Made by a program: the position numbers and the translations under genes. DNA of 56,955 nt from Anaerolinea sp. (GTDB taxonomy: Bacteria; Chloroflexota; Anaerolineae; Anaerolineales; Anaerolineaceae). Of the stretch, positions 32,495 through 50,778 are shown piece by piece; position 1 is the first letter of the stretch; each line of letters begins with the position of its first letter. Location: assembly GCA_020725865.1 (NCBI GenBank), contig DYEC01000017.1, positions 1 to 56,955 of the forward strand. Direction: 5' to 3'. The notes under the pieces were generated by a model. The model was given only the letters and a program-made list of their open reading frames with translations, was not told the DNA's origin and did not search any database.

Positions 32495-33199
32495 TCAAAG
32501 AACTTCGGCACGTAAGCCCACAATCTCTTCGCCGAACGAATCACGCTGTATAGACAAAGCATAACTAGTATATAGCGCTTGTCGCTGAGAGCTCAATTCA
32601 AATGGGAATCCCTCATTAGATCGCAAAATGTCCTCAACCAACCAATATTTCTCCGGATTAGCCAGTAACAATGCTTGAAAGAACCATTCGGCCAATTGAG
32701 GGGATTGAATCCGTCTGGGAAGTGATGGAAAAAATGTATTATTGCCTTTTGTATGAACAACTTTCCAGTCTAGCATAGTCTGAATCACACGCTCAACAGC
32801 GCGCTTGACTGTCGTTTGGTTGCTATACTTCTCCAAAATACGATAAATTATCTCTGCTTTTTTGAATTCACCCTGCAATCTTACGATACGACCAATCACC
32901 CCAGCGGTCTGGCAGAAGAGCGGAAAACGAACAAGCGCCATCCCCCAATGTAACACTACTCGTTCGTTTTCTTCAATTGAACTACACAAATTCAGCGCTT
33001 TCTGACGTAGTGAAACGCTTTGGTCTTCTGATTCAAACCAGAGATTGCACAATACGTTGCTTGTTCGCCTAGCGGATTCGGAACCTAATCCTTGATCTTC
33101 AAGCCAGGTTTTAAGCTTCTTCGAGCTTTGGTTCTGAAGAGTTGTTTCCAAAGCATATTCTGCCCATTCATAACGGATAAAACGGTCAAAGATAGTCAT
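32495..33199 (-). CDS. Small helical protein, last gene of the defence operon
   Basis: This 234-residue, almost wholly helical protein has no family I can name with certainty. Notable segments are WLEDQGLGSESARRTSNVL near the start, IYRILEKYSNQTTVKRAVERV in the middle (winged-helix-like), and LAEWFFQALLLANPEKYWLV near the C-terminus. Its size, helical nature and place in the operon recall BrxA, the small DNA-binding protein of BREX, but I see no clear sequence match. It starts 12 bases after the helicase stop and is probably cotranscribed. A DNA-binding adaptor role is inference. Confidence 0.7.
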   Translation of the reverse strand: MTIFDRFIRYEWAEYALETTLQNQSSKKLKTWLEDQGLGSESARRTSNVLCNLWFESEDQSVSLRQKALNLCSSIEENERVVLHWGMALVRFPLFCQTAGVIGRIVRLQGEFKKAEIIYRILEKYSNQTTVKRAVERVIQTMLDWKVVHTKGNNTFFPSLPRRIQSPQLAEWFFQALLLANPEKYWLVEDILRSNEGFPFELSSQRQALYTSYALSIQRDSFGEEIVGLRAEVL

Positions 33200-33211
33200 C
33201 GTTGTAAATTC

Positions 33212-36200
33212 TCAAGATAAAGGTTTGTCTAATACCCGCCCCAAAATTTCCTGAGCGAGACGACGCTCAAGTTTATCATGAACAAACTGATTACGGTAGC
33301 CACGCAGGCAACTGTAACAACTGGTGTCGCTGGCACAATCCGGGCAGGTTGCCACTCGTTCATAGGCTGCTTCAAAAACAGGATAGAGATGGTCATTAAT
33401 TAACTTGACATGCCCTGATCCGCCAGGAGTAGTATCATACAAAAGAAATGATACCCTGTTGTCCCGGTAGAAAATTGTGCCGTCAATGTCCTCGCGCGGT
33501 ATATCGAGCGCATCGCTTGCTCCGCCCAGTAGTGCATATAGCAGCGAGTACTGGGCATTTTCGCTATTGATATCAAGACTTAATCTCAATTCCAGAACAT
33601 CGGTCATGAAACGATGTCCCAGATGATACTGTTTTGCCATACCAAAGCAACTCTGTCCACTTTGGGGATTTTTATGGTTTCCGAGTTCTCGTCCTCGAGT
33701 CTGGGAAAGCGGAATTACTTTTGCATGACCACAATTAGTGCAAATGTTAAAACCTCTTCCATAGCCATTGTTCACCACTGTTAACCATGCATAACGTGTG
33801 TATGCTTTATAGACACGCTCGGGACCATAAAAATTCGCATCCAGCTCCGATTGACTCGCCAGGTCCAAACCGACATTCTGGTCTTCTGCTGTTTGATTTA
33901 CGGAAAAGTACACCCGACTTGCGTAGATATGTTCTGGTTGCTGCTCACCGGGTTTATCGGTATCCGGTCCAGCTATGAAACCAAACTCCGGGGTAATGAA
34001 AATCCCTTTTTGCCTGACCCCCGCTAGCGCTTGTCCACACACACATCGCTGGATAGGCTGATCACCAACCCGAATATTCATGCGTTTGCAAGTTCCGCAA
34101 ATTGCATATGCATACGGCTCCCATTGACGGTTGGGCAGGCGGCGAATGGCTTGGCTGTACCAGATACGTCCTGCTGCAACTACCTGTCCCCCCGGCGCAA
34201 ATTCAGAGATTGCCATTTTCAAATCGCGTTGTAATTCTATATAACGGGCTTCTGGAATATTTAGGTGATCGGTTTGTAATTGCACCACATCGGTTGGAAA
34301 GCCGTATTTAGGCAACACGTTTGTCGTACCGAGATAACCTAAAAGCTCCCGGTCGGAAATAGTATTCTGAATTTGCTTATACTGCTCAGCCAGCTTGTAA
34401 TCTCTTTCCCTAGAGGCATCCTGTTCAAGAGCGCGAAATTCTTGAAGCTCACCACAAATGATCTGACTGGCCTTATCCAAAACAGCCTCTTGACCGCCGA
34501 TTAATTGTTCTACCCACCCCCAATCCTCCAGCCCAAATTTCTGCCTCAACTCGTCATCCGCAGGAATGACTCGGCGTAATTCTTGTGCCAAATCAGATGG
34601 TCTGCTTGACAAAAACGCTTTCAAGCGTTCAGTGCCGGTGGGGCTTCCTTCAGAGGGATCAAAGAATTGACCGGCATTCCGGTATACACTCCCATAAGTA
34701 TCTTTTACCCAGCGGAAAAAACTAGAAAAAACTACCGAATGCAAGTGGCGACGGATGATTTTGTCATTTTTGAGGGTTACAATGGGCGGGCGAATTTTAC
34801 CCGCGATCATCCGTTCAGGTTCTTTATAAAACGTCAGATCGTGCGGGCGGCGCTGAGCAAAAGTTAAGACCAGCGCCACACTATCTGTGCGTCGCCCGGC
34901 ACGACCAGCTCGCTGAACATAATTCGCCGTCGAGGGCGGCACATTGCGCAGGATGACAGCGTTCAAATCTCCCACATCCACCCCTAGTTCAAAAGTGGTT
35001 GAACAGCTCAACACATTGACTTCGCCGCTGATAAACTGTTTCTGAATTTCCGCCGCTTTCTGAGATTTCCATTGCGCAGTATGTTCAACGGCTTTAAGGG
35101 GCAAAGGCCGGGTTTGTTGATATTGATAGCGGTACATATTTTCAGTAATCGCATCCTGATGGCTTGCAAGCGGTGTTAATCTTCCTTCACACCCATAGGT
35201 AGGGCATGCCCCAAACAGGTTTACAGGTGAAAGGTTTCTGCACTGTGAACAAATATACCAGTGCCTTATCCCATTCTCACCCAACGTGGGTACGACTTCC
35301 CACATATCACTACACAGTCGGTGAACAATACCAACGCCTCTCCCGGGATTATAAGAGGTAAACCAAACACTGCCACAGCTATTCACGCCTGTGAAATATT
35401 TCCATAGCTGTCCAAGTGCATCTTCCGCTAAGGCGCGCGCGTCCCCTGTAATACCCAAGATATCCAGTATTCGTACCAAAAAATCCAGACGGCTGTTTTT
35501 GCTTCGCATCGAGGGCAGCCAGCTATAAATGCCAAAACGGGCAGTTGAGCTACTACCTTTTTCTCGTATGTAAAACGGGCGCGCACGCGGCATAAATTCA
35601 TCGGGATATTTGTTAATCAGATCAATCCCCTCGTTTTCCAATAAATACGTCACCGCACCTTGCCGGCGAAGCATACTCAACAAAACGCTGATCAAATCAA
35701 AAGATTGCTCAGGGGTCAACTTCCACGGCGGGGTAAGAAAAACCTGCGGCGGCTGCCAGTTGTTGGGGCGGTAGGGGCGGAAAAACAGTAACCCTACCCC
35801 TTCCAGACTCAAGCGTTTATCCAGCCCGCTGAATTCTTGCATCAGCCAGGTTGCTACCGTGGTGCGTTTTTCGAAACGACTGGTGTTCTCACCAAAAACA
35901 TCCTGCTGCTCAGCGGTACCAACCAGATAATCAAGCCAATCATGGAATCGCAACGGTTCTTCAAGACCGTTCAGCTCCTCCAGCGACTGGACCATTAAGC
36001 GGCGGCGCAACTGGCGTTCCTGAGCGCGTTGCAAATACGGGGCAAAGAAAGCCGCCTGTTGCCGGTTGTCGGTGAAAACCAGCATTTTGCGACCTTCGCC
36101 TGGCTTATCCACCTCTTCCCCACGGGCAGGCGGCACATGTTGGTACAATGTTCCTGCCAATACACTGACCGGAGCGTCCTGACCGGTCAAGAAACGATAC

Positions 36201-38197
36201 ACAATTCCCTGTCTGCCATAAGCCGAACAGGAAACGCAGCGCTGCAAGGTGAGGCGTGATTTTGTCTCATCCTTGACAACACACGATAACCTGACCAATT
36301 CAACTCCACAGCCGCATCGCGCTTGTACTACATCCTGTTCATAAACCGCCCCACAGACCGGGCATAACTCAACAGGTTGCAAACGTTCCTCGTCTGGCTG
36401 ACCTATCTCTGCTTGCTCTTCGATTAGAGCATCCTCATCTGCCTCTTCAGCGCTCTCTCTAGCCAAAGCATAATAGGTAACATCACGCGCTTCCAATTCA
36501 TTTCGATACAGAACACTATTTTGAATAAGATACCTGATTTCTGGCGAAATCGAGCAAGTTTGACTATTTTGCTCCAACGTTTCCCCGGCAACCTCATCGC
36601 CAATCAGATAAACTTGACCACAACGCGTGCAATTCGCCAGTTCAAAGACCCGGCTGCCACAATGCGGGCAAAATTTTTGCCGGGTAAGAAACAACAAGGG
36701 TTTTCCGTTTTCTTGATGTTCCGGGTCCCTGGAGTTTAGACAGACAAAGGCACCTTCCAAAGCACGGACAAACACATGATAGCGTGCCGGCAAAAGCGGC
36801 GCCTGTTGATCCGATTCGCGTGCCAGAATGGCTGCCGAAACCAGGTTTGTTAGTGAATCCTGCGCTTCTTCTGTGCCCAGATTGGGAAAAATACGCGCTG
36901 TCACTTTCTTTAGATTTAAGGGACCATTGCGCAGTTCTGACCGCAGACGATGCAGGTTTTCATCGCCACGCAAAACCTCAAAAAGCACACGCGGTGCCCC
37001 GTGATTTTCCTGCTGGCAGGCACACCGCCACACAGATTCGGGCAGACCATCCGGTACCGAGGAAGGCAAGCTCAGAGTATGTTTTTCCCGCCACTCATCC
37101 GCCATTCTGTTCAATTCTGCGTAAAGTTGTGGGCCACCCTGGCCCCAAGTTTCACCCAATATACTTTCCGATTGACGTTTTCCCAGCACTACATCTTGCC
37201 TGACAGGATCATCGCTGACCCACTCAAACGGTAAGTTAAATAATTTACTGGCAAAATCGGCAATTTGGAACAGGCTCTGTTTGCTTTCATCGCCCAATGT
37301 GGCGCTGGTGGCAATTGCCTGCAAACGCTTTTGCCCCCCGCGTGTGACGCGATCCTGTAAACGGCGCAGTAACATAGCGATTTCGGTCGCCTGAGCGCCG
37401 TCATACGCATGAGCCTCATCCAGCACAATAAAATGCCAGTGATCACCAGTGACGTCATCGAACAAGGGAGAGTCCGCTGGTCGCAAAAGCAAATATTCCA
37501 ACATGGCATAGTTAGTCAGCAGAATATGCGGCGGAGCATCTTGAATTTGCTCTCGGCTGATCAATTCATTTTCAAGGGGTTCGGGGAATGGGTCGCTTGA
37601 ATACTGGTGAATTTGCCTGTAAAGTTCTAGAGCTTTTTCATAAGTGTCTTCTGTTTCACCGATGTAACGCCCGAAGGTGATCGAGGGATATTTTTGCAGA
37701 ATGCTTCGCAGACGGTCCATTTGATCATTTGCCAGCGCGTTCATGGGGTAAAGCAACAACGCCCGAACCCCCGGCTTTGATAACGAACCTGCATCTTCTT
37801 CGCGCAGCAAGTAATCCAGAATCGGTATCAAGAATGTTTCAGTTTTGCCGCTGCCAGTGCCCGTGGTGACCACAATATTGCGCCCATTTCTTACCTTACG
37901 AATGGCATTTTCCTGATGAACATATAGAACCCGGTCGAAGGAAATTCCCTGTTCATGACAAAGGTGTTTAAATCGGGGGCAAAGGACACCCTCAGCGACC
38001 AATTCACGGATGCTTTTTCCGCTTTCAAAAGGCGGTGTGATTTCGATATACGGACCTTTAACCAACATCTCATCCGCCCTCAGAGCACGGTCGAATTCCT
38101 GCCGCAGACGGTCATCCTGAAAGGGTTTAATTGTCTTCAGATAGCGAATATACGTTTCAGTAATTTCGCGGGTTGTTTCAATCGGGTGCAAACTCAT
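33212..38197 (-). CDS. Large SF2 helicase with zinc clusters and DUF1998 C-terminus
   Basis: The protein has 1661 residues from ATG 38197, chosen for AAGGAG 6-7 bases before it (frame open to 38230). The helicase core has TTGTGSGKTETF (Walker A, ~110), LDEAHAYDG (DEAH, ~260), TSATLGDES, and later FELGVDVGDLNAVIL plus QRAGRAGRR (motifs V/VI). Four to five Cys clusters occur (CPHCGSRVFELANCTRCG, CPVCGAVYEQDVVQARCGCG, CGTCKRM...CVCG). The C-terminus has LYDTTPGGSGHVK and CPDCASDTSCYSC, the DUF1998 metal-binding region shared by MrfA, DISARM DrmB-type and Druantia DruE-type proteins. It probably moves along or unwinds DNA for the defence complex. The gene is intact. Confidence 0.9.
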   Translation of the reverse strand: MSLHPIETTREITETYIRYLKTIKPFQDDRLRQEFDRALRADEMLVKGPYIEITPPFESGKSIRELVAEGVLCPRFKHLCHEQGISFDRVLYVHQENAIRKVRNGRNIVVTTGTGSGKTETFLIPILDYLLREEDAGSLSKPGVRALLLYPMNALANDQMDRLRSILQKYPSITFGRYIGETEDTYEKALELYRQIHQYSSDPFPEPLENELISREQIQDAPPHILLTNYAMLEYLLLRPADSPLFDDVTGDHWHFIVLDEAHAYDGAQATEIAMLLRRLQDRVTRGGQKRLQAIATSATLGDESKQSLFQIADFASKLFNLPFEWVSDDPVRQDVVLGKRQSESILGETWGQGGPQLYAELNRMADEWREKHTLSLPSSVPDGLPESVWRCACQQENHGAPRVLFEVLRGDENLHRLRSELRNGPLNLKKVTARIFPNLGTEEAQDSLTNLVSAAILARESDQQAPLLPARYHVFVRALEGAFVCLNSRDPEHQENGKPLLFLTRQKFCPHCGSRVFELANCTRCGQVYLIGDEVAGETLEQNSQTCSISPEIRYLIQNSVLYRNELEARDVTYYALARESAEEADEDALIEEQAEIGQPDEERLQPVELCPVCGAVYEQDVVQARCGCGVELVRLSCVVKDETKSRLTLQRCVSCSAYGRQGIVYRFLTGQDAPVSVLAGTLYQHVPPARGEEVDKPGEGRKMLVFTDNRQQAAFFAPYLQRAQERQLRRRLMVQSLEELNGLEEPLRFHDWLDYLVGTAEQQDVFGENTSRFEKRTTVATWLMQEFSGLDKRLSLEGVGLLFFRPYRPNNWQPPQVFLTPPWKLTPEQSFDLISVLLSMLRRQGAVTYLLENEGIDLINKYPDEFMPRARPFYIREKGSSSTARFGIYSWLPSMRSKNSRLDFLVRILDILGITGDARALAEDALGQLWKYFTGVNSCGSVWFTSYNPGRGVGIVHRLCSDMWEVVPTLGENGIRHWYICSQCRNLSPVNLFGACPTYGCEGRLTPLASHQDAITENMYRYQYQQTRPLPLKAVEHTAQWKSQKAAEIQKQFISGEVNVLSCSTTFELGVDVGDLNAVILRNVPPSTANYVQRAGRAGRRTDSVALVLTFAQRRPHDLTFYKEPERMIAGKIRPPIVTLKNDKIIRRHLHSVVFSSFFRWVKDTYGSVYRNAGQFFDPSEGSPTGTERLKAFLSSRPSDLAQELRRVIPADDELRQKFGLEDWGWVEQLIGGQEAVLDKASQIICGELQEFRALEQDASRERDYKLAEQYKQIQNTISDRELLGYLGTTNVLPKYGFPTDVVQLQTDHLNIPEARYIELQRDLKMAISEFAPGGQVVAAGRIWYSQAIRRLPNRQWEPYAYAICGTCKRMNIRVGDQPIQRCVCGQALAGVRQKGIFITPEFGFIAGPDTDKPGEQQPEHIYASRVYFSVNQTAEDQNVGLDLASQSELDANFYGPERVYKAYTRYAWLTVVNNGYGRGFNICTNCGHAKVIPLSQTRGRELGNHKNPQSGQSCFGMAKQYHLGHRFMTDVLELRLSLDINSENAQYSLLYALLGGASDALDIPREDIDGTIFYRDNRVSFLLYDTTPGGSGHVKLINDHLYPVFEAAYERVATCPDCASDTSCYSCLRGYRNQFVHDKLERRLAQEILGRVLDKPLS

Positions 38198-38213
38198 CTT
38201 TTTCTCCTTATTC

Positions 38214-41200
38214 TCATGCAGCGAAAACATCTGTGGGTCTTTCCGCCGAATAGATGGGCGGATTTTCGAATGTGTAGGGGAAAGGTATGGCAGTTGTCAG
38301 CAAGACGTGACAGGTCATTCGGTGAGCATTCCATAAATCCTGATTTTCCCTGCCCTGCGGTGCAATAAAACGCCCGCAACCGCACAAATAAGCGCCATTT
38401 ATACCCTCGATAAAGAGCTCGCTTCGTTGCAAATCCAGGATCACTATTCGCTGTTTGGGATGTCCGTCCCAGAGTGAAACTTTGAGGCGCGGTTTCTCGT
38501 TAGCAAGCAGAAAATACTCATCGCTGCTAGCATTCTCAATCTGGATGATCTTGCCCCAGCCTGCTGTGCAAAGCATCCAATAGCCCAGCCGTACTACTTG
38601 ATCAGGGATTGGATAATAACGACTCAGTTCTAGCATCAGGCGTCGGCGCAAAGGTGTATCTTCACAATTGAGCAGACTGGCAATTGCAAACTCTGGCTCG
38701 GCTGAAAGCACCTGCGCCGCATCGCGCTCAGACAGGTTTCCTGCTTTTGCTTGATTCCATAGATACTCAACCGCCTGATCGTCTCGAGCTTTAACCAACG
38801 CCTCCAAGGCTTTTCGAATAACAAAGGGAGAATTGGACAACTCAAGCAGAAGATGAGCACTCTCAGGGTTAATAACTTTTACCTCGCGAAGACTTGCCAG
38901 GTACTTTTCGACGAAATCCCGCTGAAGAGTTTTGAGTTTCTGAAGAGTCTCATGGCGGTACATGTAGAGAAGAACCGCGCTAGCACTGTTGTGATCACGC
39001 GGCTTGAGCCAGCGCTGCAGTGCATATAAATGGAGCAGGCTGGACTGGCGCCAGTTGCTGATACACCATTGAACATCTTGCGCATAACACTCTGTGTAGC
39101 CGATCTCGTAGTAAATACAGGCACGCTCAAAGTGGAGCGCAAAGGCGTTGCGCGGGTTTGTGTCCAGTTGAGCAGCAATTTGCCTTAATCGCTCTTGCTC
39201 GCTGATCAGCTCAACCTTTAGAGCACCCTCAGGCGGCTCAGCTGGCAGCTTGCCGCGGTCTTCTGGCGCAATGGCGATAAACTGTGCTTTGTAATGCGCA
39301 GGGGGAAGAGCAATTTCCTCTGGAAGGTCTGCCATCCACCAGCCCTTACCAGAAACATCTGCACTCGGCGTGGCATGATCGGGCAAGCTGATTTCCACCG
39401 GGTCCGCCCAGGGCTGCCAGAGCGACCACAATCGCAGGCAGCGATGGCGGAGTGGATTCGGTTCATGCCAGTGAACACGCCACCTGCCACCTGGTAGAGA
39501 CTCAAAATAGCAAGCGCGCACATCCAACTGTTGGGTCAGGTGAAGAACGGGAAGTTCAAGTGTCTCGTTTGCTGTTCCCAATAACTGCAGAACAAAAGTG
39601 AACACAGATTGATCATGATAATGGCGCAAAGTATCCGAAAAGGCGCCTAAGTCAAATTCCACTCTGCGATGGTTAGCATCAAATTGCCGGGTTTGCGGGG
39701 AGGACATCAAGGGTTCCGATTGCTCCGGGATTTTCAAGCACAGCTCTGCCACCAGTGACTCACCTCCACTGACAGGTAAATCCAACAATAGGCTGGGACT
39801 GCGGTTTTGCAGCACCTGCGCCAGAGGGACGGAAATGGGTCGGTGCTGCCATTCCAGCGGGCTGGCAGTTTCCAGCCGCAGAGACCAGCGCAGGCGCGGG
39901 ACCGCCAGACGCAAGGGAACACGCACCGGCTCAGGGGAAGCCGGAAGTTCCAGCCGCAGATCAGCCTGATCCAGTTCAGGGGGAACTGTAACCTGCCACA
40001 CCATATCGGTATTGTTGACCTCAAGGCTATCAGTCCCTAGCGAAGTGACATTTGCGGTTTCTGGCAGTTCGAGCGAAAAAACCACCGGCTCCGCGCCCTG
40101 CGTCCCCGGCAGATAATAAGGCTTCAGACCCTCAATCTTAATCTCTGACCAGATACGGAAGGGCAGTTCAAACGATCCATAAGCAGCATGGCTGACTGCC
40201 AGATGGTAAGTGCCAAAACAGGGTTCTTGCAACCAGCGGTCAATCTCTACCAAAGCGGCGTTCTCAGGCTCCAAAAGCTGATATGGCAGGTTGTCGGCAG
40301 TCTCTTCCCAATCCACCGCCGGTTGCGCCGCATAATGCGACGCCAGCTTTAATTTCCAACTTGCAAGCTGGTTCTCTGCGTCTTCGAGGTGACGCAGCGG
40401 CAACTTTAGAGCCGGAGCTGTGTGATAAAGCTGTTTTTCCTCCAACGGCAAGCTTTGAGGATGTATCTCCTGCCCGATCAGCTGCGGCTCTTGCGGCGCG
40501 GTAACCGGAACCGGCGGACAAACCTCGCGTCCATCCTTAAGCACACGGATCAGGCTGACCCGGCTCAGGTCCCAGAGCTGTGCCTGCCAAACATGCCAGG
40601 GTTCGGCAAATGGATGCAGAGCTCCGACTTTGTGCGGCTGCCCTTCCATCTGCAATTCACAATCCACCGGGTACAACAGCCAGAGCATTTGGGCAGGCAG
40701 GGCAGGCGTTGGGCGGCGTAATTGACGGTTGCCAGCATGGAAAGCCAGCAGCGGCGGCGCATTGTCAGCCGGTACTACGCGTAACGTCCAGCGAAAGGCG
40801 ATTTTTTCCTCTTCTTCTTCGCCGTTTTCGCAATAGACTAGGGCGACCTGAATCTGTTCTACAGGCTCTTCAATCATCCATTCAATTTCTTCGGTCTGGT
40901 ATTCCTGTCCGCTGCGTCGAATACGCACTCTCTTCTGATCGCGGCAGACCTCCTCACCATTTCGAAATAAACACACCTCCCAGCGATGCAGAAACCCGGC
41001 TTGTTCCAGTGGAACAGGCTGAGAAGGCAACAGTAAATTAAATGCCGGCGTATAGGGATCAAAGGCAAGGCGCGGCAAGCGCCGCCGCCGGGCAGGCTCA
41101 GGGGGATTCTGGATGTAATCTTCAAATGCCTGAACCACGTGCACACTGAGCCCAAGTTCGTTTGGGTTGGGTAATAAGCGGTTTTCGTTAACCAGGCGTG

Positions 41201-41816: not shown

Positions 41817-41843
41817 ATGGCTGTCCCCATTTTGTTGATTGTA

Positions 41844-44609
41844 TTAAATCAACCGTTCCTGTTTGGGCTGGGCGGCGGCGCGCAGGCGGGCATTATCCAC
41901 ATACATCAGCAGTTGCGGATCATCTTCCAATGCTCGCTCCGGCAGGCGCGCTGCCACTTCCAGAATGGTCTCATATTGACGGTCTTTCCAGGCGCGGCTG
42001 AAACCAGCCCGCACTGCCTCCAGCCGAAAGCTTTTCAGCTTTCCTCTGCCCTTCAAATATAACCCAAACTCGCGCAGCAGTGATTTTTCGCGCAGCGCCT
42101 GCAGGTCGCTCTCGCGCCCCGGGTCGGGCAGATACCAGCGCCCACGCTCATCCTGCAGAAAGTTCTCTTCCAGAATCGTCTTCAGCTCCGGCATGGCTTC
42201 ATAAACCGCCTGATGCAGCTCGCGGATAAAACGGGGATGCAGTTCTTGATAGGTCTGCGGCTCCCGCTGCAGTTCGCGGCGCAGCCACTGGACAGCGCTC
42301 TTTTCATCGCTCACAAACAGCGCAAGCTGCTCAACGCGCTCGGCTTGCAGACGACGACGGTCATATTCCGCCGACTGCAAAAAGGTGAAAAACATGCCAT
42401 CCCGTTCGGCAAAACGCTCACGCAGCCCGGCGTAGAATTCAGCCGCCGAAAGCGGCACCGCCAGCCCGCGCTGAACATGAAAGGCAACCATGCGGTCATA
42501 GAGCAGGTAGGATGCCCGCTCTTCGATGAACTCCACCACGCCGTCCTTGAGCGCAGGCATGGGCAACTGCTCCAGATGCTGGCGGATGAAATCCCACGCC
42601 GCATCCGCACTGCCCCCCTGCGCCAGAAACCGACGTTCGAACTCGGCGGCAGGTTTGTACGCCGAGATGATCAAGTCTTGCTTGACGGCACTGGTGGTTG
42701 TGACCTGCTTGAATGTGCCCTGCTTCTTATCCAGCGTGCGCACGTCGGCGACCATGAAGCCGGCGCGCAGCAGGGCTTCCTGAATGGCGTTCCAGACGGC
42801 GTTCTGCGAGTTGTGGAACTCCACCGTCATCCAGCGCCCGGGTTTGAGGACGCGGTAAAACTCGCCAAAGCAGGCTTCCATCAGCGCCTGATATTCCGCC
42901 AAGCCCTTGCGCTGGGTTTTGTTGATAACCGCCTCCGGTTCGTTGTTGGTAAACACGCCCAGCCAGGCTTCCCAGAGGAAGTTCAGCTCGGAATACATCA
43001 GGTTGGCGCCGAAGGGCGGGTCAACGAAAATGTAATCAAGAGAATTCTCAGAGAGGAAAATGGTGCTTGATGAATTGGTACTTAAAACTGATCCTTCATA
43101 TGAAATTTGTGTTTTATGATTTACTATCTGTAAAAAATCCTTTAACTTTCGGGCAAATTTTATAAAAGGGTTTTCCTCAGCAATCATTGATGCAATGTAT
43201 AAAGTTCCAGAAACAGGACCGTTGCCTCGATTCCTCATATTAAAGCGAGTCAATTTTGATGTCAATGTTACTACAAGCGATTGAAATACATCCTTCCATA
43301 GAGCACTATATGATTTTGGAGCGTTATTCCACATCCCCGCCAGCGCCCACAGATTGCGGCGGGTGTAGAAATGATGAACATGGGTAAGACCGATTTCATC
43401 ATTGCGGCGGCTTTCATCACCTTCGGGCATACGCACCGTCGGAAAAGAATAGGGGATGTCATTGTCCGCAATCTTTTGCAGCAGTGCCAGATCAAACGCA
43501 TCCGGGCGTTTCTCGTACCTTTTGGATTTGGTCCGTCCGCGAGGATAACCTGCCGCACGGGGATGGCTGTCAGCCGTCCCGCCCCCGCCGCTCACCGTGT
43601 AATTGATCAGCACCGGCACCTGCTTTGCCTGACGCACGCTCTTCCCCAGGGCGCGGTCAAATTTGGTCTCAAAGGCGCGTTCCACCCGTTTCACATCGCC
43701 GCCTTTGGGCGGGTTTTTGCTTAATCGAGTGCGACAGTGCGGGCAGTTCCATTCCTTGCTCACCTTCCCGTTCTCGTGGTCCACCGCCACATCCCAAAAC
43801 GTCATCTCGCCGCCGCACTCCGGACAGAGGAAGACATCCGACCAGACCGTATAATTGATTTTTCCTTTCACGCGGTCGGCGGCATCGCAATGGGGATGCC
43901 AGGTTTCATACATCCAGCCGCATTCCCGTTCCGCTTCCTGCAGAATGCGGCGGGCTTCGCGCTCAAAAGCGCGTGTATCTACCGGGGTGTTATAGTTATA
44001 TGCGATGAAGGTCGCCGCGGGCGAAAGGTCTATCAGGACCGCTTTGCGCGCCCCCAGGCGTGAGACGGCTTCATTGCCCTCCCGGATCACACCCTGCTCA
44101 TCCACGCGGTAACCCAGTTCCTGCACGGCTCGTTTATCGCCGCATAACTGCGCCGCTACGCCGGTCATCCCTGTGCCGCAAAAACCATCCAGGACGATGT
44201 CGCCCGGGTCGGTATAGTGCAGGATGTAACGCATGATAGCTTTATGAGGCACTTTCGTATGATAGGAATGGGCATTGTAAATTGGGTCGTTTTTGCCTTC
44301 AGAGACGTCCGCGGCAAAAGGCTGACGATGATAGGCAGTCTCATCACCGTCGAGAGCGAGCTGTTTGCGCAATTCGCTGCGTTCCTGCTGCCATTGGCTG
44401 ATGACCCCATCCATGAACGGGTTAGGGCAGGCGGTATAGTAAGGCGGATCAGAAAGAGCGAGAATCGCTTCATCGCTAGCTTTCGGAAAACCGGCTATGC
44501 GGCGAAATTCAGGGTCTTGCAGATGCAGGCGCAGTTTTTCCAGCCAGCGCCGGCGTTCGTCTTCATTCCGTTCGGGTTGTGCTTCAGGAAGAATGTGCGG
44601 TTGATGCAT
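41844..44609 (-). CDS. DNA methyltransferase with zinc-ribbon insertion
   Basis: The protein has 921 residues from ATG 44609, preferred over 44636 because AGAGAGGA is 5 bases upstream. It has LSDPPYYTACPNPF near residue 54, then motif I LDGFCGTGMTG (~141), and a zinc ribbon (CPECGGEMTFWD ... CPHCRTRL, ~265-300). A second DPPF site (YIFVDPPFGANLMYSEL, ~560) is followed by FYRVLKPGRWMTVEFHN. The last ~280 residues are helical. This resembles the zinc-ribbon adenine-specific methylases of COG1743 (DUF1156-like), found in defence islands. It would mark host DNA so the system spares it. The target base is probably N6-adenine or N4-cytosine (DPPY/F type). All core motifs are intact. Confidence 0.85.
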   Translation of the reverse strand: MHQPHILPEAQPERNEDERRRWLEKLRLHLQDPEFRRIAGFPKASDEAILALSDPPYYTACPNPFMDGVISQWQQERSELRKQLALDGDETAYHRQPFAADVSEGKNDPIYNAHSYHTKVPHKAIMRYILHYTDPGDIVLDGFCGTGMTGVAAQLCGDKRAVQELGYRVDEQGVIREGNEAVSRLGARKAVLIDLSPAATFIAYNYNTPVDTRAFEREARRILQEAERECGWMYETWHPHCDAADRVKGKINYTVWSDVFLCPECGGEMTFWDVAVDHENGKVSKEWNCPHCRTRLSKNPPKGGDVKRVERAFETKFDRALGKSVRQAKQVPVLINYTVSGGGGTADSHPRAAGYPRGRTKSKRYEKRPDAFDLALLQKIADNDIPYSFPTVRMPEGDESRRNDEIGLTHVHHFYTRRNLWALAGMWNNAPKSYSALWKDVFQSLVVTLTSKLTRFNMRNRGNGPVSGTLYIASMIAEENPFIKFARKLKDFLQIVNHKTQISYEGSVLSTNSSSTIFLSENSLDYIFVDPPFGANLMYSELNFLWEAWLGVFTNNEPEAVINKTQRKGLAEYQALMEACFGEFYRVLKPGRWMTVEFHNSQNAVWNAIQEALLRAGFMVADVRTLDKKQGTFKQVTTTSAVKQDLIISAYKPAAEFERRFLAQGGSADAAWDFIRQHLEQLPMPALKDGVVEFIEERASYLLYDRMVAFHVQRGLAVPLSAAEFYAGLRERFAERDGMFFTFLQSAEYDRRRLQAERVEQLALFVSDEKSAVQWLRRELQREPQTYQELHPRFIRELHQAVYEAMPELKTILEENFLQDERGRWYLPDPGRESDLQALREKSLLREFGLYLKGRGKLKSFRLEAVRAGFSRAWKDRQYETILEVAARLPERALEDDPQLLMYVDNARLRAAAQPKQERLI

Positions 44610-44625
44610 GACGATCCTCTCTCTT

Positions 44626-47600
44626 TTACCAGTCAATCTGAATGCGCACCTTGGCGCGGTTCTTGTCTTTTAGCTGAGCTTCCAGGAACTTTTCCAGCCG
44701 TTGATAGAATTCGTTCACCGTGCAGGGCATTCCGGGGCTGGTCAGGGCAAGCAGCAATCTGCCGCCATCCAAAACCACTTTTTCCAGCCCCCGCAGGACG
44801 TCGTTGACCGCTTCGACAAACCCCTGCGTTACATGCTCAGGCAGTTCGCCGCTCTGTACAAATGCCTGTACCTGCTCTCGCTGGGGCGATTTGAGCAGGG
44901 CAATATCTTCCAGCACTTCGGGCTTTTGCAGTTCAGCGCGCAGCCGTTCCAGCCAGGCTTGATGCAGCCGTTCCAATTCTCCCCCAAGTGATTCCAACCT
45001 TTCGATCGCTGAAGTCGTTTCCGTTTCCGCACGCGGGTCAAAACTGCAATGCGGACATTCAGTGTGATCCTTCAGGTCGGCTGTAGTCAGAACCGGACAG
45101 GCTTGCAAAGCATTGAACTTGCTTTGCAAACGCTTGAATTCACTTTCAGGCAGGATGAAAACATCCTGCAAGCTCATCAAATGCCGCCAGCGGTTATCTC
45201 TGGTCATAGCTCTCTTGCGCTCGTCACCGCTGTGGTCCAGACGGGCTTTCTGATGAAGCACAAGATAAGCCTCCACATAAGCCGCGCGCAGGTTGCTCAA
45301 CCCTCCATTCATACGCGAATAAAGGGCGGCATCCGAGCGCATCTGCGCATCACGTAGCAAGGCAAGGTGCTGTTGGCGCAAATGGTAAGCTTGCTCATGC
45401 CAGGGATGTCCCGGCGGCAGACGCAGCGCAGCGCGAGCCAGATAATTTAAATGGGGCTGCAGTGCCTGCAGCAATTCACGCAAACGGCTCAGCGCTTCCA
45501 GCGTTTTGCGTCCGCGTGCCTTGGCGCGCACTTCTCCCACACCCAAAGAAAACTGGCGCAAACGTCCGGGGCTGTTCAGCCGCTCCAGCATCTGTAACAG
45601 ATCACGATAATCTTCCAGCAATTTGCGCCATGCTTGTACTTCTTCTGTCAGTAAAACGGGTTCATCCCAATAACGCAGCCCTTCGCGCAGGCTATCCAGC
45701 GCCATCGCCAGGCGCGGCAGTTCTTTCTGCGCCAGTTGACTGACTTCCTGCGCAGCGCGCTCATGTTGTGCGGGGTCAGTAATCCACACATCCGGTAAAT
45801 CCAGCGCTTCAAACAACGCTTTCAGTGACTGTTCGGGCAATGGCTTGGGTCGGGCAATCGAAGAAAATCGGGTCAGGTCCTGCACATCCGTGCGCGCTAC
45901 CTCTTCCAGATCGTCTGAGGTAAAGGTGCGGCTCATCCATGACAAAGTGATTTCACCCAGACGCAGCAAAGCAGCCAGCACCACAACCAGCAGTTCCGGT
46001 TCCAGCCCAAAAGTCAATTCACGCTCGCGGCGCGGATCGTCGCCAATCAATTCTTTGCGGTTCAGCACCCGACCGCTCCCCACTTCATCCAGCTTTTTAA
46101 GAATGGCAGCGGCATAGCACGAATCCAGGGTAGTGAAATGAACACGCCCTTCTTCCTGACGAATCAACCCCAAACCTTCCAACAAGCTCTGTGCCTGAAG
46201 ATTCATCGAGCCGCCTGCCAGCGCGCGTAAAGCCGCCTGCGCAGCCTGCGGCAGGGAAAGCGAAGTCAACTGAACATTACGGAAGACGGGATAATTCGGA
46301 TATTTGGTTTGAAAGTGTACGCTGAGCATTGCCGAAGCAAGTTGAATTACCTGATCGCGCAGGTTTGATTCTGTCCTGCCCAACCGATATTTGCCCCAGT
46401 GCTCTGCTACGGTGTGGCAGGTATGACCATGACGAACCTCATAGGCATGGTCAAAGTTTTCGCGCAGCCAGCGTGTGAGCGTGTTTAGATGCTGCTCGGC
46501 TTTCCGTTCGTATTGTGATTTCGTGCTTCCAGAAGAGAGCGCCGCCATCTCCCTGGCGCCGGCATACAAGCGTAAAGCGTTTCGGAAGACATCATCCGCC
46601 CCTTTGAGGATAAAGAAAACCTCATCTGATTTCGGTTCATCGGACTTGCCATTGGCGCCAAACAGGCTCAGGAAATGCAGGTAAAAATCCCGCTCCGGCT
46701 GGGTGGTGGAACGCTCATTCGGAGCGCCTAAGAAGACGTAACCATCCCGCGTGATTCCATGACCGATCCAGGGTATCTCGCGTTGCCAGATACGGAAGCC
46801 GGGGCGATAGGAACTTTCAGTCAGCTCCAAAATACGCGCCAGCGCATCAAAGTAATAGCGGTCAAGAGTATCTTCATCTAGAACCGCAGCGCGCTGTTCA
46901 ATTAGTGCGTCAAAATCCACATCTTTGTCCAGATCAAGGTAATACTGGTTATTTTCGTGGTTATGAGAAATAAACTGTCCGCTGACAGTGCGCGAGATAT
47001 CCTGTAAAACGCTTTCCACACTGGTTAGCAAAAAAGAAGCGTCTGCCTCTGGGATGGGTAAGTGCAAGCACAGACGGTCGCGCAATTCCTGAGGTGTCAA
47101 ACCAATTGGAGCGCGCAGGTCGCCAGTCGTCAGACGATGCAGTGATAAAGCGTGAATGATGCGCAACGCTGCCGGACGGTAAATGGGAGTCATAGCATTT
47201 TTGATGCGTTCTTCCAGCACCTGACTCTTATCCATCACTTCGCGGATCTCCGGCGTGCTGCGATAAGATGGGTCTTCCTGAATCAGACGCCAGAACGCAT
47301 CGAACGAGATCAAGCCGGGCTGATTGGCTGGCACGTCATCATTCAGAATACGGCGCATTTCCTGGCTAATGGCTTTCAACGCCTGACGTTTTTCGATGAC
47401 AGTGACACGCTCGAACATCTCCAAGTAGGCTGGATGAACGGGGAATAGCTCCACAAATTCATCCATGCGCTCTGCCATCAAGTCATATAGCGGTGCAAAC
47501 TTCTCAAGATGGGCGCGGATGCGTTGCCGCTGAAGGTCAGTTTTCGCCAGCAAACGGCGCGAGACAACAAATGCCACATCTTCGCGGACAATCCGAACCT

Positions 47601-48327
47601 GTTGATAGCGGTCGCGCACGCGGCGAATCGAGTCAGCAGCAAACTGGAAGCGCGGGTTATCAAACAGTGATTCCTGAATCCCAGCGATAAAGCGCAAGTC
47701 GGAAACCGTACAAGCTTCGCCCACCTCGCGCAGGAAGGCAAGATCAATAATCAGATCGCGCTCTTTTCGTCCCAGAAGGTATTCCAGCAACTCATCAATC
47801 ACCACCAGCAAGCCTTGAGCGGGGTATTTCTGGTGAAAAGCAATCATAGCATTCGTTAGAAGGTCTTTGGTATTTGGCGCTTGATCCATCGGCGGAAACC
47901 GAACATCCACGCCAAGACGCTGCAGCCCTTCCTGCAAGTACCCTAATACCACGTCGCGCAGTGACATGACAGTGCTACCAAATTCCTGACGAACCACACA
48001 AAAGCGGCCCGCAATGTTGCGCAACCCGGAAGCTGCCGCCGGGTGTGAAACAGCACGAATCAGCTCGGAATGCTCTGCTACTGACGAGATAAGCGACATT
48101 AGGTGCGATTTGCCCGTACCATAGTTTCCTACAACAAACAGTCCGCCACTTTCCTCGCTTTTTCCTAACGAAAGAGTGGGAAGAATCCGGTGCAGGATGA
48201 CATCTACCATACGATCGGAGATTACATACGTGCGAACCAGACGCTCGGCTTCCTGCCTTTCATCCGCCTGACGTAATTTGACCACACTTTCAATTGGTTC
48301 AAACTGGATAAGATCGGAATATTTCAT
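44626..48327 (-). CDS. BrxC/PglY-like P-loop ATPase (DUF6079-like)
   Basis: The 1233-residue protein has Walker A FVVGNYGTGKSHLMSLI near residue 65 and Walker B GLLVVIDELLEYLLG near residue 180. The next ~150 residues fit an AAA/ORC-type ATPase (FIAGIQESLFDNPRF). The C-terminal ~350 residues are coiled-coil and include a zinc knuckle HTECPHCSFDP near residue 1080. This layout is that of DUF6079/BrxC/PglY proteins, large ATPases at the core of BREX. Its start overlaps the helicase stop by four bases (ATGA) and GAGG precedes it. No phosphatase-like PglZ, the usual partner of BrxC, is in the window. Confidence 0.85.
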   Translation of the reverse strand: MKYSDLIQFEPIESVVKLRQADERQEAERLVRTYVISDRMVDVILHRILPTLSLGKSEESGGLFVVGNYGTGKSHLMSLISSVAEHSELIRAVSHPAAASGLRNIAGRFCVVRQEFGSTVMSLRDVVLGYLQEGLQRLGVDVRFPPMDQAPNTKDLLTNAMIAFHQKYPAQGLLVVIDELLEYLLGRKERDLIIDLAFLREVGEACTVSDLRFIAGIQESLFDNPRFQFAADSIRRVRDRYQQVRIVREDVAFVVSRRLLAKTDLQRQRIRAHLEKFAPLYDLMAERMDEFVELFPVHPAYLEMFERVTVIEKRQALKAISQEMRRILNDDVPANQPGLISFDAFWRLIQEDPSYRSTPEIREVMDKSQVLEERIKNAMTPIYRPAALRIIHALSLHRLTTGDLRAPIGLTPQELRDRLCLHLPIPEADASFLLTSVESVLQDISRTVSGQFISHNHENNQYYLDLDKDVDFDALIEQRAAVLDEDTLDRYYFDALARILELTESSYRPGFRIWQREIPWIGHGITRDGYVFLGAPNERSTTQPERDFYLHFLSLFGANGKSDEPKSDEVFFILKGADDVFRNALRLYAGAREMAALSSGSTKSQYERKAEQHLNTLTRWLRENFDHAYEVRHGHTCHTVAEHWGKYRLGRTESNLRDQVIQLASAMLSVHFQTKYPNYPVFRNVQLTSLSLPQAAQAALRALAGGSMNLQAQSLLEGLGLIRQEEGRVHFTTLDSCYAAAILKKLDEVGSGRVLNRKELIGDDPRRERELTFGLEPELLVVVLAALLRLGEITLSWMSRTFTSDDLEEVARTDVQDLTRFSSIARPKPLPEQSLKALFEALDLPDVWITDPAQHERAAQEVSQLAQKELPRLAMALDSLREGLRYWDEPVLLTEEVQAWRKLLEDYRDLLQMLERLNSPGRLRQFSLGVGEVRAKARGRKTLEALSRLRELLQALQPHLNYLARAALRLPPGHPWHEQAYHLRQQHLALLRDAQMRSDAALYSRMNGGLSNLRAAYVEAYLVLHQKARLDHSGDERKRAMTRDNRWRHLMSLQDVFILPESEFKRLQSKFNALQACPVLTTADLKDHTECPHCSFDPRAETETTSAIERLESLGGELERLHQAWLERLRAELQKPEVLEDIALLKSPQREQVQAFVQSGELPEHVTQGFVEAVNDVLRGLEKVVLDGGRLLLALTSPGMPCTVNEFYQRLEKFLEAQLKDKNRAKVRIQIDW

Positions 48328-50018
48328 GCAGCACCTCGTTGTAACAATGCTTCAATTTGTTGACGGGAACGTTCATGAGCAATCATAATCAAGTGGGTCC
48401 GTGCGCGTGAACAAGCTACGTACAGTATGGGAGAAAGCCAATCCGGATCATTATCTTCCAACCCAGTCAAGATGACCACTCTGCTTTCTAACCCCTTGAA
48501 ACGATGTACACTGCTAGTTCTAATCACCATTCCTCGATGGCTGTCTCCTAGGTGAACAAGTTCAAAATTTCCTAGCCGCCTCTTGCTGAAGAAAGACGTA
48601 CGCTCGGGATTTCTGGTTGTTAAAAGAATGATATGAGATGGTTCAACCTGTTCTTCAATAACCAAATGGTGCAGGACTGACTGAATATATTGTTCTTGTT
48701 GATGCTGGTCAGAAAAGAAAAACACTTCAGGTTTTCTGCCCAAAGGTGCGCGACAATCCAGCGCCTCGGGGCGATCATGAAGTTGTTTGACAACGTCATG
48801 GATAGAACGCGTGTTCCGGCAGTTTTCCCATAAAGTCAACGGAGGCGAGGGGATTAACCTTTCCAAACCAGAAGAACGACGATAAAGATTCTGGTTATTA
48901 TCATAAAAGGCGTAGAAAATGCCGTTCTCATGGTCGTTCAGAAGGAAAAACAGCGTCTCCCACCATTCATCTAAAAAGTCCTGACCTTCGTCAACGATAA
49001 TGGCATCATATTGAGGTCCCCGTTCTCCAATAGCATCCAACAGCATTTCTGGTAAGACACGGTTGAAGTAATCCTGTTCATTATTCGATGAACGAAAGCC
49101 AATACCTGCTTCTTTGGCAAGTTGCCTGCACAAATCATGGAAGTTAAAAACGTCAACACCTTCAGGCGCTCGCAAGCGAAGATACTCAGCCAGCGGTGCA
49201 TTGAAACAAACCAGCAAAGTAGCAAATCCCTGATTGGATAGCTGACGAGCCTTTTCCAGTGCCAGCATGGTTTTACCGGAACCAGCACAGCCTTCAATCC
49301 GAGCCCGGCGGTGACATTGAATGTAGCGCAACACTTTCATCTGGTCTTCCGTCAACTCAATCAGACGTTTATCTTCATCCTCCAGAGCAACACCGAGCGG
49401 TGTTTTCAAGGTAAACGAAGATGCTAGCAGGTTCTCGAGTTGATGCAAGCGGGCTATTCCAAGATCACCGCGTTTACGCTCGTTGCCAAAAAACCACTCG
49501 AAGCCTGACTGTACTTTTCTTTCTATATCAGACAAGTCCCTGTGGTCTATAATCAATTCGCGTGAAAGGTCCGGCCGCAAATTTATGTTTTCAACAATCA
49601 CATCTGGAAAGACCACTTGATAAGCGACCGTCAGGAAGCGGTTATCCCAGTTGGGTAGCTCTTGCAACTTTCTAAGCAATGTCCCCTTGCTGTTGCGTGC
49701 CTGTTCAACAGGGTCTTTGATTGCGTGCTCTACACCAGCGCGATCCACACTGAACCACTGTTTCAGCTTGGCATCATATCGGATTTGTCCTCCCTTTACT
49801 TCGAGGATCATAACACCCAAAGCTGGATGAGCGATGACGAAATCACTCTCACCGTCTTGAGCACCACCATATGTAGTGCGAATCTGCCATCCTACGCCAT
49901 AAAAAATCACATAAGAATCAGGTAATTGAGAAAGTGCCTGATATACTTTAATCTCAGCAGAACGCTTCGGATCGCTTTTTATATATTCAGGAATGCGTTC
50001 CGGGTAAATTTTCGCCAT
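48324..50018 (-). CDS. NERD-domain UvrD-like helicase, first gene of the defence operon
   Basis: The protein has 564 residues from ATG 50018 (an in-frame GTG at 50033 adds five). The N-terminal ~150 residues form a NERD nuclease-related domain: YGGAQDGESDFVIAHP and GVMILEVKGGQIRYD carry the D...ExK pattern. The rest is a short SF1 helicase: IEGCAGSGKTMLALEKA (Walker A), DAIIVDEGQDFLDEWW (Walker B), FYAFYDNNQNLYRR, LWENCRNTRSI, and at the end HRFKGLESRVVIL and LYVACSRARTHL. It leads the six-gene operon, 214 bases after the Rossmann-fold gene, with the structured element between them. It likely supplies nuclease and unwinding activity to the system. Confidence 0.88.
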   Translation of the reverse strand: MAKIYPERIPEYIKSDPKRSAEIKVYQALSQLPDSYVIFYGVGWQIRTTYGGAQDGESDFVIAHPALGVMILEVKGGQIRYDAKLKQWFSVDRAGVEHAIKDPVEQARNSKGTLLRKLQELPNWDNRFLTVAYQVVFPDVIVENINLRPDLSRELIIDHRDLSDIERKVQSGFEWFFGNERKRGDLGIARLHQLENLLASSFTLKTPLGVALEDEDKRLIELTEDQMKVLRYIQCHRRARIEGCAGSGKTMLALEKARQLSNQGFATLLVCFNAPLAEYLRLRAPEGVDVFNFHDLCRQLAKEAGIGFRSSNNEQDYFNRVLPEMLLDAIGERGPQYDAIIVDEGQDFLDEWWETLFFLLNDHENGIFYAFYDNNQNLYRRSSGLERLIPSPPLTLWENCRNTRSIHDVVKQLHDRPEALDCRAPLGRKPEVFFFSDQHQQEQYIQSVLHHLVIEEQVEPSHIILLTTRNPERTSFFSKRRLGNFELVHLGDSHRGMVIRTSSVHRFKGLESRVVILTGLEDNDPDWLSPILYVACSRARTHLIMIAHERSRQQIEALLQRGAA

Positions 50019-50080
50019 GTTTAATTCCCACACTTTTTAGCATCACTGAACGTACGATTGCTTCAAAAAGCTTACAGCAA

Positions 50081-50232: not shown

Positions 50233-50778
50233 CTATATCTTGTCAGGCGCAGCAAAGGCGCCCATCAACCGGATTGCCAAAGCCACAGCTTCTTCTGGGT
50301 TCTTGGCGTAATGAATGTGCATCAAATGACGGCTATCGAGGTACGCTCCATCTTCCAGCGCCACACTTCGTAACCGCTCAGACCATCCACCGGTCGTCTC
50401 CAACACAATCAAGGGTTTGGCATGTTGATATGCCAGCACAGCCTCACTTAAAGTCCCCACCTCGCCATGAAGCATGATCACTGCATCAGCAGAGCGTATA
50501 GTTAGAAAGTTTCGTAATGCATAGCCCAGGCCAGTTGGAATAGCAATATCTACAAAAGGATTGGCATCCCCACGTGACAAACCCGGCAAAATGCCAATTG
50601 TTAAACCACCAGCCGATTTTGCACCACGGCAGGCGGCTTCCATCACTCCCTTACGCCCACCACAAACCAATATCATACCCGCCTGGGCAATCCGGCGACC
50701 GAGCTCTTCAGCATCCTTCAACACCCCGGCTGGCACATTTTCCCCTGACCCAATAACCGCAATATATTTTTTATTCAT
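50233..50778 (-). CDS. LOG/TIGR00725-like Rossmann-fold protein
   Basis: The 181-residue protein begins KYIAVIGSGENVPAGVLKDA and has VCGGRKGVMEAACRGA, GILPGLSRGDANPFVD and GEVGTLSEAVLAYQ, the pattern of the TIGR00725/LOG-type family. Classical LOG enzymes release cytokinin bases from nucleotides with PGGxGTxxE; here this reads GEVGTLSE, and activity is uncertain. It starts one base after the amidohydrolase stop and is the last gene of the second BMP-transporter operon. A role on nucleotides or nucleosides would fit its neighbours. Confidence 0.8.
   Translation of the reverse strand: MNKKYIAVIGSGENVPAGVLKDAEELGRRIAQAGMILVCGGRKGVMEAACRGAKSAGGLTIGILPGLSRGDANPFVDIAIPTGLGYALRNFLTIRSADAVIMLHGEVGTLSEAVLAYQHAKPLIVLETTGGWSERLRSVALEDGAYLDSRHLMHIHYAKNPEEAVALAIRLMGAFAAPDKI

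What the first reader, a model, noticed from the sequence alone, without database searches (positions are those of the whole stretch)
32495..50018. Six-gene candidate anti-phage operon not matching a known system
Seen: six leftward genes with gaps or overlaps of 4-30 bases encode a NERD-UvrD helicase, a BrxC/PglY-like ATPase, a zinc-ribbon DNA methylase, a 1200-residue beta-rich protein, a DUF1998-type SF2 helicase and a small helical protein. Known: BREX combines BrxC/PglY with PglX and PglZ; DISARM combines a methylase with DrmA/DrmB; Druantia uses a large DUF1998 helicase (DruE). Inference: this operon merges a BREX-type ATPase and methylase with a DISARM/Druantia-type helicase, and lacks PglZ, BrxL, a PLD nuclease and any Lon-like gene. 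It may be a separate self/non-self DNA system.
Basis: partly seen in the sequence, partly recalled or inferred. Interest (0 to 1): 0.88.

Follow-up and report, generated by a model that had tools for sequence, protein, structure and literature searches.

The report
BREX operon with Druantia-like effector pair
A bacterial gene cluster, probably for fighting viruses, combines the DNA-marking half of one known defence system (BREX) with a two-gene unit resembling another (Druantia), suggesting that attack units can be swapped between systems.

Summary
Profile scans identify BrxC (1420 bits), the BREX type 3 methylase BrxXI/PglXI (1266 bits), BrxA (the 'small helical protein', E 1e-47), a YprA/DruE helicase (708 bits) and a NERD-UvrD helicase. 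The 1200-residue protein hits no model, but is probably a distant homologue of Druantia III DruH (profile-profile E 1.2e-5, probability 81%).

So a BREX type 3 core carries a DruH-DruE-like pair exactly where class relatives carry PglZ: BrxF-BrxC-BrxXI-PglZ-BrxA in 6 of 6 PglZ loci, NERD-BrxC-BrxXI-[DruH-like-DruE-like]-BrxA in 3 of 3 six-gene loci. No PglZ or BrxF match was found elsewhere in those three genomes. A second arrangement occurs in other Chloroflexota.

Best reading: a methylation-guided anti-phage system whose PglZ effector was exchanged for a Druantia-type sensor-helicase pair, with NERD-UvrD as probable nuclease. Function is inferred, not shown; two systems sharing a locus remains a serious rival. 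I found no description of the combination in the papers I could search. New variant of a known kind.

The parts
48324..50033 (-). NERD-UvrD nuclease-helicase, first gene of the operon (likely start 50018)
   Evidence: PADLOC RTasNERD-Hel E 2e-83 and NERD+UvrD model E 3e-32; Pfam NERD 4e-10; nuclease motif ExDF...EVKGG in 7 of 7 homologues aligned, helicase Walker A intact
44626..48327 (-). BrxC (DUF6079) AAA+ ATPase of BREX type 3 kind
   Evidence: PADLOC BrxC 1420 bits over residues 1-1231; Pfam DUF6079 1273 bits; Walker A/B intact
41844..44636 (-). BrxXI/PglXI N6-adenine methylase with inserted four-cysteine motif
   Evidence: PADLOC PglXI 1266 bits; DGFCGTG and DPPF motifs and four cysteines present in 6 of 6 rows aligned
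38214..41816 (-). P1200, DruH-like protein: helical N-terminus, chain of beta-sandwiches, helical repeat region
   Evidence: No hit in PADLOC, Pfam or NCBIfam; profile-profile match to DruH E 1.2e-5 with controls; AF2 model pLDDT 77.7
33212..38230 (-). YprA/DruE-like SF2 helicase with C-terminal DUF1998/MZB zinc domain, no further C-terminal domain (likely start 38197)
   Evidence: PADLOC DruE1 708 bits, DruE3 637 bits; MZB at 1565-1642 of 1672; helicase motifs intact; tree
32495..33199 (-). BrxA DNA-binding protein, last gene of the operon
   Evidence: PADLOC BrxA E 1.1e-47; orthologues in G388 and G138 also match BrxA

Best explanation
The operon is a BREX type 3-derived defence system in which the PglZ effector (and any BrxHII helicase) is replaced by a Druantia III-like DruH-DruE pair, with a NERD-UvrD nuclease-helicase as leading gene and no BrxF. 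Shown here: gene identities, intact motifs, conserved order, the pair in the PglZ slot, no PglZ or BrxF match in three genomes, and a distant profile match to DruH. Inferred: BrxXI methylates adenine at host sites; BrxA and BrxC engage DNA and couple modification status to the effector; the DruH-like protein senses infection through its Ig-like region and licenses the DruE-like helicase on ssDNA-containing phage intermediates; since this helicase ends at its zinc domain, the cut is made by NERD-UvrD (or by the DruH-like protein, a dimer-dependent nuclease activity being reported for DruH in passages of PMC13192584). Unmethylated phage DNA would be destroyed or blocked from replicating while host DNA is spared.
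For: BrxC, BrxXI, BrxA and DruE-like profiles match strongly. The DruH-like protein and helicase form a conserved pair: 12 of 13 other Chloroflexota genomes and 22 of 24 genome-contig loci, the sets overlapping. P1200 versus DruH profiles: score 61.5, E 1.2e-5; 81 reversed or shuffled controls reach at most 24.6. Slot exchange: 6 of 6 PglZ loci are BrxF-BrxC-BrxXI-PglZ-BrxA, 3 of 3 six-gene loci are NERD-BrxC-BrxXI-P1200-YprA-BrxA, and none of 26 stretches holds both PglZ and P1200. No PF08665 or BrxF match in G000, G388, G138. Genes overlap or nearly touch; motifs intact. BrxC of the six-gene loci form a clade (SH-aLRT 100) with two further NERD-bearing loci, apart from PglZ-linked BrxC.
Against: The pair usually occurs without BREX genes, so it may act alone. 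The DruH match is weak with single or few sequences (E 0.31; E 0.011), and no PADLOC DruH model is hit by any member scanned. G770, bearer of the second arrangement, has PglZ domains on two other contigs, and G790 on one. BrxHII cannot be excluded elsewhere in G388 and G138, where that unspecific profile gives weak partial hits. 14 of 26 BrxC stretches are undecided. No experiment shows defence or methylation.
Confidence: 0.5

Rival explanations
1. Two systems share one locus: a self-sufficient Druantia III-like pair sits inside a BREX type 3 locus that has lost its effector and now only modifies DNA or is decaying. The pair defends alone.
For: The pair is mostly found without BrxC. In G329 and in Rhodobacter sp. 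CZR27 a DruH(-like)-DruE(-like) pair lies beside a complete HmaABC set with its own helicase, which looks like two neighbouring systems.
Against: The pair is nested between BrxXI and BrxA with tight junctions and in the same order in three diverged genomes (P1200 31-52% identical); all three lack PglZ and BrxF; the BREX genes keep intact motifs; a second lineage also joins BrxC directly to the pair.
Confidence: 0.28
2. A wholly separate self/non-self system in which the six proteins work by a mechanism that is neither BREX-like nor Druantia-like.
For: Conserved six-gene set; no complete match among PADLOC systems by component; NERD-UvrD is not a listed core component of BREX type 3 or Druantia III.
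Against: Five of six genes match known families, three of them the BREX type 3 core, and the sixth a DruH profile.
Confidence: 0.1
3. An ARMADA, TALON or DISARM variant.
For: ARMADA also joins a YprA helicase with a PglX-like methylase, and TALON joins a YprA helicase with a NERD nuclease in Chloroflexota (PMC12458937, parts 1-3 read).
Against: No BrxHII/RapA-like gene among the six as ARMADA requires; no TBP in 7 of 7 genomes and no cold-shock or TPR hit in the six proteins as TALON requires; best DrmA score 68 bits and no PLD hit for DISARM.
Confidence: 0.06
4. An ordinary BREX type 3 system whose PglZ acts from elsewhere in the genome.
For: BrxC, BrxXI and BrxA are all present; G770, with the second arrangement, does have PglZ domains on other contigs.
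Against: No PF08665 match and no BrxF match in G000, G388 or G138.
Confidence: 0.03

Closest known systems
BREX type 3 (BrxF, BrxC, BrxXI, BrxHII, PglZ, BrxA)
   Same: BrxC, BrxXI and BrxA present by profile; the gene order frame BrxC-BrxXI-...-BrxA is kept
   Different: No PglZ, BrxF or BrxHII in the operon; a DruH-like/DruE-like pair fills the PglZ slot and NERD-UvrD leads the operon
Druantia type III (DruH-DruE)
   Same: Adjacent large Ig-rich protein and YprA-family helicase; DruE3 profile 637 bits; profile-profile match to DruH
   Different: No hit to PADLOC DruH models; helicase is a separate clade from four DruE3 and ends at the zinc domain (1672 aa against 2104 aa in E. coli); embedded in BREX genes
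ARMADA (YprA helicase, BrxHII-like helicase, PglX-like methylase)
   Same: YprA helicase with a BREX-type methylase
   Different: No BrxHII-like gene, and BrxC and BrxA are present; PMC12458937 main text has no occurrence of BrxC, PglY, PglZ or DUF6079
Hma / DUF499-centred BREX-related system beside DruH-DruE (Rhodobacter sp. CZR27, G329)
   Same: A BREX-like ATPase and methylase next to a DruH(-like)-DruE(-like) pair
   Different: Hma keeps its own helicase HmaA, so these look like two complete neighbouring systems

Membership tests
BREX type 3 | BrxC (DUF6079) ATPase | tested here: met
   1420 bits, full length
BREX type 3 | BrxXI methylase with inserted domain and four-cysteine motif | tested here: met
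   PglXI 1266 bits; motifs and four cysteines
BREX type 3 | BrxA | tested here: met
   E 1.1e-47
BREX type 3 | PglZ (described as defining in PMC12839542, section 18) | tested here: not met
   No PglZ profile hit in the six proteins; no PF08665 match in the genome
BREX type 3 | BrxF (iSTAND) | tested here: not met
   No BrxF profile match in G000, G388, G138 with PDLC02497; present in the second arrangement
BREX type 3 | BrxHII helicase (77% of type 3 in PMC12839542) | tested here: not met
   None in the operon (the helicase scores as DruE); no PDLC02504 match in G000, though that profile is unspecific
Druantia type III | DruE (YprA-family helicase) | tested here: met
   DruE3 637 bits, DruE1 708 bits; outside the DruE3 clade in the tree
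Druantia type III | DruH partner | tested here: inconclusive
   Profile-profile E 1.2e-5 with clean controls but no PADLOC DruH hit
Druantia type III | C-terminal PLD-type nuclease domain on the helicase (III-A; often absent in III-like branch, PMC12458937) | tested here: not met
   Helicase ends 30 residues after the MZB domain
ARMADA | BrxHII/RapA-like helicase gene beside YprA and PglX-like genes | tested here: not met
   No such gene among the six
TALON | TBP and TPR-CSD genes with YprA and NERD nuclease | tested here: not met
   TBP (PF00352) 0 of 7 genomes; no TPR or cold-shock hit in the six proteins
DISARM | Split DrmA/DrmB helicase and PLD nuclease DrmC | tested here: not met
   Helicase and DUF1998 are one protein; best DrmA 68 bits; no PLD hit
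any anti-phage system | Protection against phage; host DNA methylation by BrxXI | not testable with these tools
   Needs phage challenge and methylome sequencing

The most novel reading that the evidence does not exclude
A new BREX-related type in which the effector module is swapped: a Druantia III-like DruH-DruE pair takes the place of PglZ, so that methylation-based self/non-self marking gates a Druantia-style sensor-helicase with a NERD-UvrD nuclease. It occurs in two lineages of Chloroflexota (two swaps, or one swap with later change). PglZ would then not be indispensable to BREX logic, and Druantia effectors could be put under epigenetic control.
Probability: 0.42. Interest if true: 0.72.

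Novelty: new variant of a known kind. Interest (0 to 1): 0.58.

Why it matters
How BREX stops phage is still debated, with PglZ only recently proposed as its nuclease (PMC12839542 section 40; PMC12205998 seen only in a search listing). A natural BREX core without PglZ but with a Druantia-like pair in its slot gives a direct genetic test of which BREX genes sense and mark DNA and which destroy it. It would also link two large defence families through effector exchange, and it extends Druantia III-like pairs to loci that the PADLOC DruH models miss.

Tried and rejected
Rejected: chance ORF run; ordinary BREX 3 with PglZ in trans for the six-gene form; ARMADA, TALON and DISARM membership; P1200 as a recognisable PglZ (no PADLOC family at E up to 10).

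Led nowhere: plasmid tblastn with P1200 found no match. Foldseek against PDB and viral models, and the VIA-align second look, returned generic Ig/FN3-like chains (50 VIA rows shown, Z 6.5-7.7 apart from one at 8.9); DruH and PglZ are not among the rows shown, which excludes neither. The flank-gene search for an empty insertion site was uninformative (2 of 61 family genomes matched, the window's own included). Promoter scan: 12 found, 14.5 expected; terminator-like: 30 found, 20.7 expected, not pursued. GC is 0.511 in the operon, 0.486 and 0.47 in the flanks, not decisive.

Left out before counting: of the 28 class genomes with a BrxC match, four (G499, G632, G675, G784; contigs under 8 kb) were not examined. 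Of the 26 BrxC stretches, 14 show neither PglZ nor P1200, many because the contig ends; only one divergent BrxHII query was used there. G043 and G433 have only the P1200 gene on short contigs. In the YprA tree the 'hybrid' label needs three changes and 18 of 500 shuffles are as low; long branches are flagged.
Full report
Observation. Six leftward genes at 32495-50033 are present as described, with junctions of -17 to +27 bases. Profile scans name five of them: BrxA (234 aa, E 1.1e-47), a YprA/DruE helicase (1672 aa, 708 bits to DruE1, 637 to DruE3), the BREX type 3 methylase PglXI/BrxXI (930 aa, 1266 bits), BrxC (1233 aa, 1420 bits) and a NERD-UvrD helicase (569 aa). Pfam gives DUF6079, MZB, N6_N4_Mtase and NERD for four of these and nothing for BrxA. 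The 1200-aa protein (P1200) has no hit in PADLOC, Pfam or NCBIfam.

What P1200 is. A search of 400 genomes of the phylum found P1200 homologues in 14, the window's own included. In 12 of the other 13 a YprA helicase is the neighbouring large gene; the thirteenth (G433) is a 3.9-kb contig (in G280 the helicase is read in two ORFs, in G273 the order is reversed). YprA is adjacent in 22 of 24; L068 ends inside P1200, and L070 shows no YprA in its remaining 2 kb. A large beta-rich protein next to YprA is the layout of Druantia III DruH-DruE. A profile of 13 P1200 proteins (A1) against a profile of 8 DruH proteins (A2, from plasmid records) gives score 61.5, E 1.2e-5, probability 81%, collinear over 402 columns. 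One reversed and 80 shuffled DruH profiles reach at most 24.6. A second set of 22 P1200 proteins, 19 of them new, gives E 1e-5 over 557 columns. Weaker or negative results: one DruH sequence E 0.31, five P1200 proteins E 0.011, and no PADLOC DruH hit in the 13 or the 22 members. The AF2 model (pLDDT 77.7, pTM 0.49) has a helical N-terminus, a run of beta-strand domains and a helical repeat region; the strand domains match Ig/FN3 domains generically. Passages of PMC13192584 describe DruH with three Ig-like domains and an N-terminal regulatory surface.

Trees. In a 33-row YprA tree (quick method, rooted on ARMADA) the 22 P1200-linked helicases form one clade (SH-aLRT 100), separate from four DruE3 of Druantia III (100). 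Those that sit with BREX genes fall in two places within it (long branches flagged among other rows). In a 22-row BrxC tree the three six-gene BrxCs cluster with two other NERD-bearing loci (100), the second arrangement clusters separately (97), and the five rows labelled PglZ-linked lie in two further clades.

Neighbourhoods. A BrxC search of 396 genomes of the class matched 28 at E up to 1e-40, the window's own included. Twenty-six stretches were examined: 25 from that survey (four genomes with short contigs left out; G790 gave two) plus L067. Six carry PglZ, all ordered BrxF-BrxC-BrxXI-PglZ-BrxA; two of these PglZ were also confirmed by profile. Three (window, G388, G138) are NERD-BrxC-BrxXI-P1200-YprA-BrxA. 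Three (L066, L067, L068) are a second arrangement beginning BrxF-BrxC-P1200; L067 continues YprA-NERD-BrxXI, and no BrxA was found in these stretches. Fourteen show neither effector, many because the contig ends. No stretch has both PglZ and P1200. No PglZ domain and no BrxF match occurs in G000, G388 or G138. G770, which bears the second arrangement, does have PglZ domains on other contigs, and so does G790. No BrxHII match was found in G000; weak partial hits of that unspecific profile occur in G388 and G138. The catalytic motifs inspected are intact.

Comparison with the literature. PMC12839542 (outline, sections 14, 18, 20, 25 part 1, 28 and 40, and passages read) calls PglZ a defining BREX component, describes type 3 as BrxC, BrxXI, PglZ, BrxA, BrxF and BrxHII, and its main text has no occurrence of YprA, Druantia or DruE. 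PMC12458937 (parts 1-3 of 8, figure legends and passages read) describes ARMADA, BRIGADE, TALON and Druantia III-like helicases most often without a nuclease domain; its main text has no occurrence of BrxC, PglY, PglZ or DUF6079. Six full-text searches listed no paper that I recognised as describing BrxC/BrxXI with DruH/DruE; longer hit lists were shown only in part. Supplementary files could not be read, so prior listing there cannot be excluded.

Mechanism. Most likely BrxXI marks host DNA, BrxC and BrxA keep their BREX roles, the DruH-like protein acts as infection sensor, the DruE-like helicase works on phage DNA, and NERD-UvrD supplies the nuclease, since the helicase ends at its zinc domain and the NERD motif is conserved in 7 of 7 homologues aligned. 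Every step after gene identity is inference. The main rival is two systems sharing a locus. It is supported by the frequency of the pair without BrxC, and by two loci where a DruH(-like)-DruE(-like) pair lies beside a complete HmaABC. It is weakened by the nested and conserved arrangement in which the pair sits in the PglZ slot of an otherwise effector-less BREX core.

Verdict. A real operon, part BREX type 3 and part Druantia III-like. It fails BREX membership on PglZ and is only Druantia III-like on DruH. New variant of a known kind.

Noticed in passing
L046:10280-14320, L047:9298-13323, L050:9360-13433, L024:8365-12399, L048:4396-8433, L036:16342-19755, L070:5518-9765, L074:310-4380: In 8 of 32 P1200 homologues compared, the DruH-like protein is fused at its C-terminus to a principal-type sigma-70 factor (L046 residues 1044-1326 match SigA/HrdB, E 2e-74). 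A sigma factor fused to a defence sensor next to a YprA helicase is unexpected (PADLOC calls it MzaA).
   Followed up: partly
L139:7997-27639 (Rhodobacter sp. CZR27 plasmid NZ_CP023549.1): A complete HmaA-HmaB-HmaC set followed on the same strand by a STY4851-family (DruH) gene and a DruE-type helicase.
   Followed up: partly
L022:2-17309 with L045 (genome G329): P1200-YprA pair followed on the same strand by HmaA, HmaB and HmaC; its YprA is close to that of the BrxC-linked L066 pair.
   Followed up: partly
L078, L082, L083, L084, L085, L086, L087 (Bacillota loci): P1200 homologues here are longer (1441-1664 aa); in the set scanned, one member hits LmuB and one JetC (SMC-like) models, the output not naming which.
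   Followed up: no
50233-50778: A SLOG cluster 4 (LDcluster4) protein gene lies directly upstream of the operon on the same strand, followed by an amidohydrolase gene; whether it belongs to defence or to the transporter/metabolic genes is unknown.
   Followed up: no
L138:1445-20000 (genome G622): A divergent BrxC locus with two unassigned genes (364 and 927 aa, no PADLOC hit), BrxXI, a BrxHII-like helicase, a short NERD fragment and a TPR protein, without a recognised PglZ in the stretch.
   Followed up: no
L119:2-5846 and L120:283-6177 (genomes G494, G790): NERD-UvrD, BrxF and BrxC in a row: possible intermediates that kept BrxF, cut off by the contig end before the effector.
   Followed up: partly
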